Assembly: GCF_023612255.1 (NCBI RefSeq)
Contig: NZ_CP063231.1
Location: 2,090,001-2,154,000 of the forward strand
Direction of reading: 5' to 3'
Length of the DNA stretch: 64,000 bases
From: Luteibacter flocculans
Lineage (GTDB): Bacteria > Pseudomonadota > Gammaproteobacteria > Xanthomonadales > Rhodanobacteraceae
Shown: one piece after another, positions 49,431-55,386 of the stretch
Position numbering within the stretch: position 1 is the stretch's first letter
Layout: every line of letters begins with the position of its first letter
Made by a program: the position numbers and the translations under genes
Notes under the pieces: model-generated
What the model was told of the DNA's origin: nothing
Database searches by the model: none
The model's input: only the letters and a program-made list of their open reading frames with translations

Positions 49431-51104
49431 CTAACCCACGCGATGATCCGCAGACTGGTCGCCCGCCGCGTAGGCGACCCCCGGGTCACGACGTCGCGTA
49501 TCGGACACGATGCGTCCCGATTCCAGCTTCACCACGCGATCGGCGAGCGCGAAATAGCGGTCGTCATGGGTAATCGCGACCACGGTCTTGCCCTGAGCTT
49601 TCAGGTCCGGCAGCAAGGTTCGGTAGAAGTAATCGCGGAAGTGCGTGTCCTGATCGGCGGCCCATTCGTCGAAAAAGAAAATGTCCCTGTCCTCGGCATA
49701 GCACTGCAACAGCGCCAGGCGCTTGCGCTGTCCGGTGGACAGCGTGAGCTTGGACAATTCCCCCTGCTCCACCTGCACCAGCGAGCCGAGGCCCAGTGAG
49801 GTCAGCAAGGTCCGGATGCGCTCATCGGAGAGCGGTCGCCCGCTCGCGTCGAGTACGTGGGGGAAGAGAAAGAAGTCGCCGAACACCCCGGTGAAGCGTT
49901 GCCGGTGCGGTTGCGTATCTCGACCGAGCGGCACGTCATCGATGAGCAGTTCCCCGGTGCGGGGCGTGAGCAACGAGGCAAGCAGCAGCAACAAGGTCGA
50001 CTTGCCGCTGCCATTGCCGCCCACGATGAAGAGCAACTCGCCACGCTGGATGTCGAGGTCGATGGGGCCTAGCGCCACGCGTCCTTCTTCTTCGCCGGCA
50101 TAGGCATAGGTCACGCCGCGGAGCGCGATGCGCTGCCACGCGCCGCCCTTCCCCTGCACAGCGGACCGTCTCGATGAGCCGTCACCATCGAGGTCCAGGC
50201 CGACACGTTGAAGATGCCGAAGGCTCGCCGTGCCGACACCTACCTGCCGCGCAGCGCTCACGATGAACGCCACGGGGCCGCTGAGAAACAAGGCGCCGAT
50301 CACGAACCGCATGATCGTCGTCTGCGGCAAGGCCAGACTCGCATAGCCGATGTAGACGATGACGAAGACCGATGCGTAGATCACGGTCGATGTCCATGCC
50401 TCGTTGAAGCCCAGGCCCGTGTGTACCTGCACCATCAGGCGGCGGGAGCGGCCGATGGCCGGGCGGATGAGTTCGTCGGCGACGTGCTTTGCGCGGGCGG
50501 CATTGAGCGCCAGTTCCTTTTTTCCTTCGCTCAAGTAACGGAAATACTCGAAGACCTTTTCGTTCGCATCGCGCAAGGCATCGAAGCGACGACGAAGAAA
50601 ACGTTCCAATGCCATCGACGCAACCACGGTGACGCCGAGAAAGCCCGCGAGAATAGCGAGCAGCGGCGGCGACACGCTGGCGAGATAGCTCACATACAGG
50701 ACGACAAGCAGCACGTTGTACGCCAGCAAGGGTGCGACGAGGACCAGCGGCGCGATACTCGCCACGTCTTCGATGAGCGATCCGAAGATCGTGTGCTTCT
50801 CGTTGGCGAGCGTTTCGTACTCGAGGTCGACGAATCGGCGCGAGAGGTCGATGCGCAGCTGCGCGACGAGATCGCCACCCAGACGGGCGAGAATGAATTG
50901 CGACGCGGCTCCTGTCGCGAGGACCGCAACCAACCAGCCCGCGCCTTCCCATAGCGGTGCGGTGTCACCGGCATGCACGCCATGCGTTGCCATGGCGTTG
51001 ATGTGCGATAGCAGCGCCATGGTGGACAGCGCGCTTGCGGCAGACAATGCCACGGCGCTCGCCACGAGCATGCGATGCTGAAGGATGAAGCGCTTGAGGA
51101 TCAT
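49431..51104 (-). CDS. cyclic-peptide-type ABC exporter (SyrD/PvdE-like)
   Basis: 557 aa from ATG 51104 (AAGGATG upstream). An N-terminal six-helix membrane domain (residues 1-310) is fused to an ATPase with Walker A GGNGSGKST, signature LSTGQRKRLALL and Walker B IFFFDEWAADQD, with a switch His in ITHDDRY. It lacks the C39 peptidase domain of LanT transporters. Divergent from the lanthipeptide precursor by 212 bp and likely exports the modified peptide. Confidence 0.88.
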   Translation of the reverse strand: MILKRFILQHRMLVASAVALSAASALSTMALLSHINAMATHGVHAGDTAPLWEGAGWLVAVLATGAASQFILARLGGDLVAQLRIDLSRRFVDLEYETLANEKHTIFGSLIEDVASIAPLVLVAPLLAYNVLLVVLYVSYLASVSPPLLAILAGFLGVTVVASMALERFLRRRFDALRDANEKVFEYFRYLSEGKKELALNAARAKHVADELIRPAIGRSRRLMVQVHTGLGFNEAWTSTVIYASVFVIVYIGYASLALPQTTIMRFVIGALFLSGPVAFIVSAARQVGVGTASLRHLQRVGLDLDGDGSSRRSAVQGKGGAWQRIALRGVTYAYAGEEEGRVALGPIDLDIQRGELLFIVGGNGSGKSTLLLLLASLLTPRTGELLIDDVPLGRDTQPHRQRFTGVFGDFFLFPHVLDASGRPLSDERIRTLLTSLGLGSLVQVEQGELSKLTLSTGQRKRLALLQCYAEDRDIFFFDEWAADQDTHFRDYFYRTLLPDLKAQGKTVVAITHDDRYFALADRVVKLESGRIVSDTRRRDPGVAYAAGDQSADHRVG

Positions 51105-51316
51105 CGACGCATCCTTACACCATTGTCGCGTCTGCGCATGGTGCCAGACATGCATAGTCGGCATGAAAAGCCTATTGCGTGCGGAATCGGCAAATCGCAC
51201 AAAATCACGCTGCGAACTCCTCAGAATGCCTGAGCGGTGTCGTCGTGGACGCGCCCGCCGCGACGCGATTCCTATACCGTCCGGGCGCACACCCGTAACA
51301 CGTAAGGAGTACTCGT

Positions 51317-51505
51317 ATGCAGACCGACAAGATCCTCGCGGGATGGTTGAGTGGCGCCGACAACGTAGGTGGGTATGACAACCCGGCTGGGCCGCTTTAC
51401 ACCGAAGGTCACAACCAGACCCTCATGGCCATGACCAGTACGGATATCGCACTGATTTCCAATTGCAGTTCGTGTACGGCTTCCCGGCCGGGCGTCTGCT
51501 GCTGA
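51317..51505 (+). CDS. class II lanthipeptide precursor (LanA)
   Basis: 62 aa from ATG 51317 with AAGGAG seven bases upstream. The leader (about residues 1-39) holds LAGWLSGADNVGGYDNPAG and the core end is ISNCSSCTASRPGVCC with cysteines at 50, 53, 61 and 62. Ser/Thr at 40-42, 48, 51, 52, 54 and 56 could form up to four (methyl)lanthionine rings. It has no GG/GA double-glycine cleavage site near the core. It lies directly before lanM. I know no named peptide with this core. Confidence 0.85.
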   Translation: MQTDKILAGWLSGADNVGGYDNPAGPLYTEGHNQTLMAMTSTDIALISNCSSCTASRPGVCC

Positions 51506-51519
51506 CAGGCAGTAGTCGC

Positions 51520-51547
51520 GATAGCCGTGGCAACCACCACGGCTATC
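51520..51547 (+). terminator. hairpin between lanA and lanM
   Basis: Perfect 11-bp stem GATAGCCGTGG/CCACGGCTATC with a CAACCA loop, 15 bp after lanA, followed by TCTTCCG with no full T-run. This is likely a partial terminator or mRNA-stabilising stem that sets a high precursor-to-enzyme ratio. Confidence 0.65.
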
Positions 51548-51593
51548 TCTTCCGTCGCTCCTCCCGCTTGCAACGGTCATGCAGGGACCGCCC

Positions 51594-54464
51594 ATGGATG
51601 CATCCGCATCGCCTAACGCCTTTGCTCCCCTCATTGCTTATCTGACGGATGACGTACGACGACGTCTCGCCAGTGACATCGCCGCCCAGGCCGGGCTCGA
51701 CGCCGCCGAAAGAGAGCTGGTCGCAGCGACCGCAGAGCGCGCCCTACGCGACAACGCAGAACGCAAGCTCAACCGCGTGCTTCTGCTCGAACTGCACGCA
51801 GCGAAGCTGTCCGGCGAACTGCCTGAAGGCTCTGACGCATCGCGTTTCGCCGCCTTTATCGCCCGCTCGATGACGACCGAGTTCATCGCAGCCATCGATC
51901 GACGTTACCCCGTGCTGAGGCCTCGCCTCGCTCGCGCCCTCGATCAGCAACGCCGGGCCATCGTCGCCATGGTGTCCCGACTGGAGGCCGACCGCGATGC
52001 CTTGTCTGCCTTCCTCGGTGCCGATCTGGGCGCGCTGCGCGCATTGCACCTCGGCGAAGGCGACGTTCACGAGGGCGGGCAATCCGTAGCGCGCCTCACA
52101 TTCGTCGGCGGCACGGTCATGTACAAGCCGAGGTCGCTGCATGTCGATGCGGCGCTGGATCGCTTTCTCGCCACGGTGCTTCGCGACGCTCCATCGCGCA
52201 TACGCGTTCCCGCGGTGCTCGACCGAGGCGATTACGGGTGGAGCCGGCACGTCGACCACGTGTACTGCGTCGACGATGCCGAGCTTGCTGTGTTCTATCG
52301 GAACATCGGCCATTGGCTCGCGGTCATGCGACTCCTGGGCGGTACCGACATCCACTACGAGAACCTGATCGCCTCGTCCACGGTGCCCTATGTGGTCGAT
52401 GTCGAAAGCCTGTTCGTCACCGAGATCCCCCTGCCGCCCTCGCAAAAGGGCGAAGCCGTCGATCTTGCGCAGGCGCTCATCCGCTCGTCGGTCCTGCGGA
52501 CGGGTCTTGTCCCCTTTCGCGCACCCGTTCTCGGGCTGGACGGCGTGGACATATCCGCCATCGGTGCGCTGCAGGGGGAGCAGCCGAAGATCCGCGTGCC
52601 TGAGATCGTCGATCCCGGAACGACCGACGCCCGCGTCGGCCTGGTCAGCGTCGATATCGATACCGGCAAGAACCATCCCTGCCTCAACCCTGACATCTCG
52701 CGCTTCTGGGAGGACATCGTCGTCGGCTTCCGCACGATGACCGAGACCTTGAACGAGCGGCACCGCAAGGGGGAGCTCGCGCCGCTGCTCGATGCCTTCG
52801 TCGGGTGCCGGATCCGACGCATCCGGCGGCCGACGCAGGCGTACGTCGAGGTCATGCGCATGCTCTGGCACCCCGCATCGCTGCATGACGAAGCCGCCGC
52901 TGTCGAGCGTGCTCGCGACCTGCTCGCGAAGAACGCCGCCGTATCTCCGGTGGCCCCGTCCGAGCCGGCGCTCATCGCCAGCGAGATCGACGACATGCTT
53001 TACGGGGATGTGCCCGTCTTCGCCAACGTGCTCGACGCGTCGCAGCGTGACGAGGTGTTTCGAGCCTGGCTGGACATGCGCGTCGAACTGGAGGAGCTGA
53101 CCATCCGCGGCGCCCTCGTGACCGCTCACCTCAACGTTCGACTCAACGACGACAAGCGATCTCCCTACGACCTATCTGCGCACCATCCGCATGCGAACGA
53201 TCTGGATCGACGGCGGCGATCCATGGCTCGGCAGACGCTCGAACAGCTGTTGCGTCTCTCCGTGCGTGGCGACGATCGCACCATGACCTGGATCAGCCCG
53301 GTGCTGGGCCGCGGCGGTTGGCAGATGCGTACACTCCAATCCAATCTCTACGTCGGCCTTGGCGGCATCGTGCTGGCATTGGCGACCTATGCTGAAGAGA
53401 TGCGCCAAGGACGCCTCGATGAGGTGGCGGGCATCGGCGATGCGCTGGAGGGGGTGCTTCGGATTCTGCGCGCGGCGGAAGACGTCGATGAACCCGAGGC
53501 GATCGGCGGCTTCATTGGGCTCGGTTCGCAGGTGCAGACGTGGCTCGTGCTCGATGGGCTGATGCCTGGGCGTGGCTACGTGTCCCGTGCTGTGGCACAG
53601 GCCGCACGTATGGAACAGTGGAACATCGAGAACGAGCGCGTGCTCGACGTTCTCGAAGGCGTCGGCGGTGCGATCGTTCCCCTGCTCAATCTGGCCGAGG
53701 CTACCGGCGATTCACGTTGGCTGTCACTCGCCGAGCGTGCCGGCAGGCACCTCGAAGCCACGGCCATCGTCGACGAACGCGGCGCGTGCTGGCCCGCGTC
53801 GATCTTCGACGAGCCCATCGGTGGCTTTGCGCATGGCGCCACCGGTACAGGCTGGGCGTTGACGCGTCTTGCGCTCAGTAACGCCGGGACGGCCACCGAT
53901 CGACAGCGTTGGCTCGCGCTCGCCGAGCGGGCGTTCGACTTCGAGGAATCGCTGTACGACACGGAGGCGGGCAATTGGATCGACGTTCGCAAGCCGGATA
54001 GCCGGGACTTCGCGAACACCTGGTGTCATGGCAGCGTCGGCATTGGCCTGGCGGCCTGCGATCTCTACGAACGTACGGGACACCCGCGTCACCTGGACAC
54101 GCTACGCCGCGCGGTGCGCGTCGCGGCCGAGGGTGGCTGGGGCCACAGTCACACGCTTTGCCATGGCGATCTCAGCAACTGGGAGCTGTTGAACCGCGCG
54201 TCGCGCATCGCCGCGTCCCAGGTGCCCGATAGCGGCATGCCGCCAGCGGCGATCGTGTTGTCGAGCATTGAGGAGCACGGCATCGTCGGCGGCCTGGCAC
54301 GCGATGCGTTCAACCCGGGGCTGATGAGCGGCGTGTCGGGGTCGATCCTGCAACTGGCGCGCATGCACCCCGCGTGCCCGGTGCCGTCGGCACTGCTGAT
54401 GGAGTATCGCGTGGCGAAAGCGCCACGCGATGCGGCGCAGCAACCTGCGGTGGCCGCGATCTAG
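51594..54464 (+). CDS. lanM: class II lanthipeptide synthetase LanM
   Basis: 956 aa from ATG 51594 (AGGGA upstream; ATG 51579 is an alternative). The N-terminal dehydratase domain has TVMYKPRSLHVD near residue 180, GGTDIHYENLIA near 250 and VVDVESLF near 270, the kinase-like catalytic motifs. The C-terminal LanC-like cyclase has zinc ligands Cys811 in TWCHGSVGIG and Cys856-His857 in LCHGDLSNW. It dehydrates Ser/Thr with ATP and closes thioether rings in the LanA peptide. Both halves appear complete. Confidence 0.94.
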   Translation: MDASASPNAFAPLIAYLTDDVRRRLASDIAAQAGLDAAERELVAATAERALRDNAERKLNRVLLLELHAAKLSGELPEGSDASRFAAFIARSMTTEFIAAIDRRYPVLRPRLARALDQQRRAIVAMVSRLEADRDALSAFLGADLGALRALHLGEGDVHEGGQSVARLTFVGGTVMYKPRSLHVDAALDRFLATVLRDAPSRIRVPAVLDRGDYGWSRHVDHVYCVDDAELAVFYRNIGHWLAVMRLLGGTDIHYENLIASSTVPYVVDVESLFVTEIPLPPSQKGEAVDLAQALIRSSVLRTGLVPFRAPVLGLDGVDISAIGALQGEQPKIRVPEIVDPGTTDARVGLVSVDIDTGKNHPCLNPDISRFWEDIVVGFRTMTETLNERHRKGELAPLLDAFVGCRIRRIRRPTQAYVEVMRMLWHPASLHDEAAAVERARDLLAKNAAVSPVAPSEPALIASEIDDMLYGDVPVFANVLDASQRDEVFRAWLDMRVELEELTIRGALVTAHLNVRLNDDKRSPYDLSAHHPHANDLDRRRRSMARQTLEQLLRLSVRGDDRTMTWISPVLGRGGWQMRTLQSNLYVGLGGIVLALATYAEEMRQGRLDEVAGIGDALEGVLRILRAAEDVDEPEAIGGFIGLGSQVQTWLVLDGLMPGRGYVSRAVAQAARMEQWNIENERVLDVLEGVGGAIVPLLNLAEATGDSRWLSLAERAGRHLEATAIVDERGACWPASIFDEPIGGFAHGATGTGWALTRLALSNAGTATDRQRWLALAERAFDFEESLYDTEAGNWIDVRKPDSRDFANTWCHGSVGIGLAACDLYERTGHPRHLDTLRRAVRVAAEGGWGHSHTLCHGDLSNWELLNRASRIAASQVPDSGMPPAAIVLSSIEEHGIVGGLARDAFNPGLMSGVSGSILQLARMHPACPVPSALLMEYRVAKAPRDAAQQPAVAAI

Positions 54465-54561
54465 TGTGACGGTCCACGCCGTTGGCATGCCGAAAGTCAT
54501 GCCAACGCTTCCGCCGTGGCGCGCATCCCATCGGCTCGTAGACCATCCGATGGGGTTCACC

Positions 54562-55386
54562 ATGTGTCGTTGGGTATCCGCTGCCTTCCTGGCTGTCGTC
54601 TCTCTGTGCGCGGGCGCCCAGGAGGCTCCGCAGATGATGTTCCTGGGCTCCGGCCACCTGGCCAATCACAATCGCGACGTCGCCAACACACATGTGGAAG
54701 ACGTGCGTACTCCCGCGCGGCAGGCCGAGATCGAGACGATGGTCGCGCGGCTGGCGGCCTGGAAACCCACACACGTCGCGATCGAATATCCCTATGCGAA
54801 GCAAGCGGAACTGGACAAGCGCTATGCCGATTACCGGGCGGGCCGCTATACCTTGACGGCAGACGAGACCGACCAGATCGGTCTGCGCCTAGCGAAACAG
54901 CTGGGTCTGCCACGTGTCGATGCCGTGGACTGGAATGACAACGCTCCCGGCAAGGACGCCGACTACGATTGGATGGCGTGGGCCAAGGCGCATGGCAAGG
55001 CCGATCTGCTGGAGGCTAGGGTCGCCCCATGGAAAGCTCAGGCGGCGAAGGAAACCGAGTACCTGAAAAGCCACAGCGTGACGGAGTGGTATCTCATGTG
55101 GAACGATCCGAAGCGTATGGCCGAGGACCAGAAGGGGTACTTCGATCTGCCGCTGTTCGGCGACGACAGCAACAACCCCGGCGCCGCATGGGTCGGTCAA
55201 TGGTATGCACGCAACCTGCGCATCTTCACACACATCCGCGCGCTCGCCACCAAGCCCGACGATCGCGTGCTGGTCATCTATGGTGCAGGCCACGGCCCCC
55301 ACTTGCGCAAGGACGCCGTGGAGTCCAACGTATTCCGACTGGTCGAGCCGCAACCATGGCTCACGGGGCAAGCCTCGGCGCGATAG
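54562..55386 (+). CDS. DUF5694-like exported protein
   Basis: 274 aa from ATG 54562. Signal peptide (VSAAFLAVVSLCAGAQ), then MMFLGSGHLANHNRDVANTH, WKPTHVAIEYPY and VLVIYGAGHGPHLRKDAVES. The pattern is that of DUF5694/TraB-like proteins with His/Glu positions that may bind metal. Its relation to the lanthipeptide cluster, if any, is unknown. Confidence 0.78.
   Translation: MCRWVSAAFLAVVSLCAGAQEAPQMMFLGSGHLANHNRDVANTHVEDVRTPARQAEIETMVARLAAWKPTHVAIEYPYAKQAELDKRYADYRAGRYTLTADETDQIGLRLAKQLGLPRVDAVDWNDNAPGKDADYDWMAWAKAHGKADLLEARVAPWKAQAAKETEYLKSHSVTEWYLMWNDPKRMAEDQKGYFDLPLFGDDSNNPGAAWVGQWYARNLRIFTHIRALATKPDDRVLVIYGAGHGPHLRKDAVESNVFRLVEPQPWLTGQASAR

What the first reader, a model, noticed from the sequence alone, without database searches (positions are those of the whole stretch)
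49431..54464. Class II lanthipeptide cluster with non-LanT exporter in a gammaproteobacterium
Seen: a 62-aa precursor with a strong ribosome binding site and a Ser/Thr/Cys-rich end ISNCSSCTASRPGVCC; a complete LanM with kinase-like dehydratase motifs and zinc ligands; and a divergent ABC exporter of the SyrD/PvdE type. Known: class II clusters normally use LanT with a C39 peptidase that removes a double-glycine leader. Here there is no C39 domain and no GG/GA site near the core. Inference: leader removal and export follow a different route, and the product is probably new. LanM clusters are rare in this bacterial group.
Basis: partly seen in the sequence, partly recalled or inferred. Interest (0 to 1): 0.82.

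Follow-up and report, generated by a model that had tools for sequence, protein, structure and literature searches.

The report
Luteibacter lanthipeptide cluster, rhodanocin relative
A bacterium of the genus Luteibacter carries a three-gene set that should make and export a small ring-bearing peptide; it belongs to a peptide family described in 2022, but with an extra cysteine and its own kind of export pump.

Summary
A 62-aa precursor (51317-51505 +), a complete LanM (best start 51594) and a divergent ABC exporter (best start 51104) are present. The exporter passes the TIGR01194 "cyclic peptide export" cut-off and shows no C39 domain. The precursor is a member of Pfam DUF6229 (3e-22), which a 2022 paper showed to be lanthipeptide precursors ("rhodanocins"); that producer strain is now listed among Luteibacter strains, the window's genus. 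LanM is not rare here: 36 of 147 sampled family genomes pass the cut-off.

What is additional: this core forms its own clade. In 14 of 14 genomes it has four invariant Cys and four constant Ser/Thr positions, and it keeps the (S/T)xCxxCTxS template of the NMR-solved rhodanocin. I predict the same interlocked rings plus a fourth. The exporter is adjacent in all 14, in two gene arrangements, and is absent from the 30 sampled regions with other DUF6229 cores. There is no double-glycine site near the core and no C39 gene nearby, so leader removal by an unlinked protease is inferred. Nothing was tested chemically. A new variant of a known kind.

The parts
51317..51505 (+). lanA: DUF6229 precursor, 62 aa; leader about residues 1-42 (51317-51442), core region about 43-62 (51443-51502)
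   Evidence: PF19740 78.7 bits; RBS AAGGAG 51304-51309; 13 orthologues with the same core, pN/pS 0.26 over the 14. The leader/core border is inferred from homology, not shown.
51458..51502 (+). ring-forming part S48-C62 (SNCSSCTASRPGVCC): four constant Ser/Thr positions and four invariant Cys (50, 53, 61, 62)
   Evidence: Conservation in 14 of 14 genomes; (S/T)xCxxCTxS fits the NMR ring numbering of rhodanocin. The rings are predicted, not observed.
51594..54464 (+). lanM: class II lanthipeptide synthetase (dehydratase plus cyclase)
   Evidence: TIGR03897, PF13575 and PF05147 over cut-off; aligns to LicM2 and CylM; a LanM lies downstream of the precursor in 40 of 40 sampled DUF6229 regions. 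Start from relatives.
49431..51104 (-). ABC exporter of the cyclic-peptide export family (TIGR01194; YojI/PvdE/SyrD-like), no C39 peptidase domain
   Evidence: start supported by where homology begins and by TAAGGA upstream; beside this core in 10 of 10 sampled regions, 0 of 30 for other cores
51105..51316 (.). divergent intergenic region between exporter and precursor, presumed promoters for both
   Evidence: Position only; the consensus scan found no sigma-70-type site (0 found, 0.3 expected)

Best explanation
This is a compact class II lanthipeptide cluster of the DUF6229 family in a Luteibacter. LanM binds the leader of the 62-aa precursor, dehydrates Ser/Thr in the C-terminal SxCSxCTASRPxxCC region and closes thioether rings. 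By homology with rhodanocin (T6-C11, C8-S14, T12-C23) I expect S48-C53, C50-S56 and T54 to one of C61/C62; the extra Cys and the constant S51 predict a fourth ring. The dedicated TIGR01194-type ABC exporter moves the product across the inner membrane, as YojI does for the lasso peptide microcin J25, probably as cyclised peptide without leader. The leader is removed by a protease encoded elsewhere, since the cluster holds no C39 and no other conserved fourth gene, and the precursor has no double-glycine site. Shown: gene content, family membership, conservation, exporter-core linkage. Inferred: ring pattern, leader removal, transport substrate, antibacterial use.
For: PF19740 and TIGR03897 over cut-off. 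A DUF6229 precursor expressed from its refactored cluster gave a peptide with four dehydrations and three rings in E. coli in PMC9576775, ring numbering given. LanM follows in 40 of 40 DUF6229 regions. Of the 14 genomes with this core, 14 have an exporter of 63-100% identity adjacent: upstream and divergent in the 10 Luteibacter-genus genomes, downstream and codirectional in the 4 others, three of which are named Dyella. In the genus, 10 of 23 genomes have the precursor type and the same 10 have an exporter of 69% identity or more. The LanMs of this core form one clade (SH-aLRT 100). Four Cys and four Ser/Thr positions are constant. In 11 regions with this core, every ORF family found in four or more lay within the span of the three genes, apart from a second ABC protein of one region that joined the exporter family.
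Against: No compound, mass or phenotype. The ring pattern is transferred from a peptide whose LanM probably lies in the other deep clade (that of G133/G143, which carry the rhodanocin-like core); I did not see the published precursor sequence. Exporter-core linkage is within one clade, so the counts are not independent events. LahT150 did not cut rhodanocin at its possible GG site, so leader processing in the family is unsolved.
Confidence: 0.77

Rival explanations
1. The ABC protein is mainly a self-protection pump (immunity) that expels peptide re-entering the cell, rather than the route of first export.
For: YojI, the best-matching named model (PRK10522, 361 bits but under its cut-off of 604), is described as a microcin J25 efflux pump of E. 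coli (PMC13082787, passages). No other gene that could give immunity is conserved in the cluster. The 30 sampled regions with other DUF6229 cores have precursor and LanM without this exporter.
Against: Both roles may be one: in Gram-negative RiPP clusters one exporter often exports and protects (recalled).
Confidence: 0.3
2. A C39 peptidase encoded elsewhere in the genome removes the leader in trans, as a normal LanT would.
For: The window genome holds 3 C39 places, two in open frames of 740 and 722 aa, the size of C39-ABC exporters.
Against: They lie 0.94-1.6 Mb away. Of the 11 genomes with this core, four (G049, G053, G089, G101) show a single C39 match, in an open frame of 243-418 aa. No G[GAS] pair at residues 31-50 in any of ten relatives.
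Confidence: 0.12
3. The exporter is an unrelated neighbour and the cluster is only precursor plus LanM.
For: Divergent orientation in the window; other DUF6229 branches, Corallococcus included, lack it beside the cluster.
Against: It keeps company with this core in 14 of 14 genomes and in two gene arrangements, while the window's flanking MFS gene and downstream peptidase gene are not beside the cluster in the genus relatives that have them.
Confidence: 0.04
4. The peptide is not an antibiotic but a signal or a metal- or surface-active peptide.
For: The solved rhodanocin had only weak activity (MIC 126 uM, K. pneumoniae, on a probably non-native fragment). The core is strongly conserved rather than diversified (14 of 14).
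Against: Class II lanthipeptides with known function are mostly antibacterial (recalled).
Confidence: 0.25

Closest known systems
Rhodanocin (LanII of Dyella sp. 333MFSha; PMC9576775)
   Same: DUF6229 precursor with LanM; core template (S/T)xCxxCTxS in the same register with a C-terminal Cys; strain 333MFSha is listed among proposed Luteibacter mycovicinus strains, the window's genus
   Different: Window core has four Cys, not three; RPGVCC tail instead of a longer tail with Thr18 and Cys23; Ser 51 after the first Cys where the rhodanocin-like genus relatives have Ala, Val or Leu; dedicated exporter; its LanM is in another deep clade than those of G133/G143, which carry the rhodanocin-like core
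Lysobacter and other DUF6229 lanthipeptides (PMC11451712)
   Same: Same leader family, LanM directly downstream
   Different: Other Cys/Ser/Thr spacing; exporter not found in the six Lysobacter loci
Corallococcus DUF6229 precursors (L088, L091, L094, L095, L099)
   Same: PF19740 at 78-90 bits, 5 of 5; cores such as TGCSSCTASTTAWCC; LanM 48-50% identical
   Different: Myxococcota; no such exporter in the DNA held beside them; tails TTxxCC (3 of 5) or CADxxCC (2 of 5) instead of RPxxCC
Microcin J25 efflux pump YojI / TIGR01194 exporters (SyrD, PvdE)
   Same: Exporter family of this cluster; YojI handles a mature ribosomal cyclic peptide
   Different: YojI equivalog cut-off not reached; here it sits in a LanM cluster

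Membership tests
Class II lanthipeptide cluster | LanM with dehydratase (PF13575) and LanC-like cyclase (PF05147) domains | tested here: met
Class II lanthipeptide cluster | Adjacent precursor with leader and Ser/Thr/Cys core | tested here: met
Class II lanthipeptide cluster | Thioether rings formed by the LanM | not testable with these tools
   needs co-expression and mass spectrometry
DUF6229 (PF19740) | Score over the curated cut-off across the family length | tested here: met
   78.7 bits against 25, positions 3-62 of 62
Rhodanocin, strict sense | Core (T/S)xCxxCTxS | tested here: met
   SNCSSCTAS; numbering, sequence
Rhodanocin, strict sense | Three Cys with Thr18 and Cys23 in the tail | tested here: not met
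   four Cys, RPGVCC tail
Rhodanocin, strict sense | LanM of the same clade as the rhodanocin-like loci | tested here: not met
   G133/G143 LanMs lie in the other deep clade; these two stand in for strain 333MFSha, which I could not fetch
Cyclic peptide exporter TIGR01194 | Score over cut-off | tested here: met
   303.6-303.8 against 286.2
YojI equivalog PRK10522 | Score over cut-off | tested here: not met
   361 against 604
LanT-type class II export | C39 peptidase fused to the exporter, GG/GA/GS site before the core | tested here: not met
Mersacidin/lichenicidin lantibiotics | Match to a mersacidin-type family in Pfam or NCBIfam | tested here: not met
   No such family listed at E up to 1; the NPAG leader resemblance is recalled only

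The most novel reading that the evidence does not exclude
A four-ring lanthipeptide subfamily built on an interlocked rhodanocin core, exported as a mature cyclic peptide by a dedicated pump of the siderophore/lasso-peptide exporter family. The leader would be removed inside the cell by an unlinked housekeeping protease: a LanT-free route for class II lanthipeptides in Gram-negative bacteria.
Probability: 0.3. Interest if true: 0.55.

Novelty: new variant of a known kind. Interest (0 to 1): 0.36.

Why it matters
Leader removal in DUF6229 lanthipeptides is a gap: the 2022 study used AspN, and its authors say this probably does not give the native peptide. A branch with a dedicated, genetically linked exporter gives a clean system in which to find the native product and its protease. 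The matched set of four Cys and four Ser/Thr gives a concrete ring prediction that one mass-spectrometry experiment can test.

Tried and rejected
Promoter and terminator consensus scan between the genes: nothing found. Conserved accessory genes, including a protease: a first pass over 40 regions plus window used an overlap filter that lost some real genes (for example the exporters of L041 and L042). A second pass without the filter, over the 11 regions with this core, found no family in four or more regions outside the span of precursor, LanM and exporter, except a second ABC protein of L034 that joined the exporter family; flanking genes recur only in sets of three regions. ORFs under 60 aa were not looked at. 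Corallococcus neighbours searched for a processing gene: of the ORFs scanned only a DEAD-box helicase and a GFO/IDH oxidoreductase were named. Common flanks in the genus: the MFS and peptidase neighbours are found elsewhere or not at all. Other exporters: L047 and L049 (CGTACTGS cores) have an ABC protein that scores best with MsbA models, none over a cut-off among the 25 shown. Papers: searches for DUF6229 (2 papers), rhodanocin, Luteibacter with lanthipeptide, lanthipeptide/SyrD/PvdE/cyclic peptide export by any two terms (11, seen as a listing only), and broader ones; the library lacks most subscription papers. No structure prediction was run.

Full report
What is there. The 62-aa precursor at 51317-51505 (+) follows AAGGAG at a 7-nt spacing and matches Pfam PF19740 (DUF6229) with 78.7 bits over residues 2-62. 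The LanM matches PF13575, PF05147 and TIGR03897, all over cut-off. A profile of 11 LanMs finds LicM2 and CylM in the PDB; the alignments keep the kinase-type motifs, and the zinc-site motifs align with LicM2 and, in a weak second stretch, with CylM. Which residues are catalytic is recalled, not from a call. The exporter passes TIGR01194 and shows no C39 domain; all 11 exporters compared match TIGR01194 and PRK10522 at E below 1e-40, with the cut-off shown only for the window's. Likely starts are 51104 for the exporter and 51594 for LanM. The genus is Luteibacter: contigs of named Luteibacter records have the same lengths as contigs of 'same genus' handles, and the nearest LanMs in the tree are Luteibacter. 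The strain is not named.

What it is. DUF6229 was shown to be a lanthipeptide precursor family in PMC9576775, of which I read sections 9 and 15 and passages of others. The precursor of Dyella sp. 333MFSha was modified in E. coli with four dehydrations and three rings (6-11, 12-23, 8-14, Dhb at 18). The product was weakly active against K. pneumoniae and was named rhodanocin. LahT150 did not cleave it, and AspN was used instead. PMC11165876 (passages) lists strain 333MFSha among proposed Luteibacter mycovicinus strains and reports uncharacterised lanthipeptide clusters there, class II in all five strains. PMC11451712 (passages) reports 21 of 27 unique Lysobacter class II precursors as DUF6229. 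So the cluster type is known.

How common. In a sample of 147 genomes of the family, 34 have DUF6229 over cut-off (38 at E up to 0.01) and 36 have LanM over cut-off (39 at E up to 1e-20). In a sample of 398 genomes of the phylum only 3, all in this order and one of them the window's own, have DUF6229; in some genomes only 15 first-look candidates were scored. DUF6229 also occurs in Corallococcus (Myxococcota): LanMs of 48-50% identity, with a precursor upstream in 5 of 9 Myxococcaceae loci, all 5 over the PF19740 cut-off. The other four matches begin within 175 bases of the start of the DNA held.

What is special here. I fetched all 44 other DUF6229 places over cut-off, in 40 regions of 13-19.5 kb. 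A LanM lies downstream in 40 of 40. Ten regions hold the core (S/T)xCSxCTASRPxxCC; all ten have the exporter (63-85% identity). None of the other 30 has it at over 400 bits (Fisher p 1e-9; the ten are one clade, so this overstates independence). Genome-wide, the exporter at 63% identity or more occurs in exactly the 11 genomes of the sample with this core; two weaker matches (49%, 46%) are in other genomes. That search scored only 9 first-look candidates in the genomes listed. In the genus set the same 10 of 23 genomes have both, two further matches being only 31-34% identical. The exporter is upstream and divergent in the Luteibacter genomes but downstream and codirectional in the other four, so gene order alone does not explain the linkage. 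LanMs of this core are one clade in a quick LG+G4 tree of 62 rows.

Core anatomy. Over 14 genomes, Cys 50, 53, 61, 62, Ser 51, Thr 54 and Ser 56 are invariant and residue 48 is always Ser or Thr, whereas residue 52 is Ser or Gly and residues 40-42 vary. Four donors therefore match four Cys. The stretch S48-S56 has the register of rhodanocin T6-S14. The rhodanocin-like precursors that I read in the genus (G133, G143, and L118-L120) have Ala, Val or Leu where this core has Ser 51, and only one C-terminal Cys; one of the two G545 precursors was not read. I infer that Ser 51 and the extra Cys form a fourth ring. The same template occurs in 13 of 44 fetched precursors and with LanMs of both deep clades, so it is either old or has arisen more than once.

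Leader removal. None of the ten sampled precursors of this core has G[GAS] at residues 31-50, while 14 of the other 34 do. All 34 genomes searched have C39 genes somewhere, 79 places in all. The nearest to a precursor on the same contig is 28 kb away, in G036, which has another core. Four of the 11 genomes with this core have one C39 match only, in a short frame. A trans-acting C39 is thus unlikely but not excluded. The true protease is unknown, as for rhodanocin.

Verdict. Real, complete, under purifying selection (pN/pS 0.26, 0.17 in the ring part, uncorrected). A new variant of a known kind: a four-Cys DUF6229 lanthipeptide with a dedicated cyclic-peptide exporter.

Noticed in passing
L118, L120 (and G133, L070): Rhodanocin-like loci in Luteibacter carry two precursors about 0.5 kb apart with different tails (for example ending in HIQCGA and ITQCA), which might be a two-peptide system; not noted in the passages I read of PMC9576775.
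   Followed up: partly
L088, L091, L094, L095, L099 upstream of LanM: Corallococcus precursors pass PF19740 and have cores such as TGCSSCTASTTAWCC, close to the window core although in another phylum.
   Followed up: partly
L055 (G084:C2:220583-223359): A LanM next to a DUF6229 precursor is split over two frames, possibly a frameshift or sequencing error.
   Followed up: no
L047, L049: DUF6229 loci with CGTACTGS cores have an ABC protein resembling MsbA directly downstream of LanM, so different branches may have recruited different exporters.
   Followed up: partly
window 54553-55386 (+): A DUF5694 protein follows LanM here and in G010 (88% identity), but was not found in the other 39 regions; probably not part of the cluster.
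   Followed up: partly
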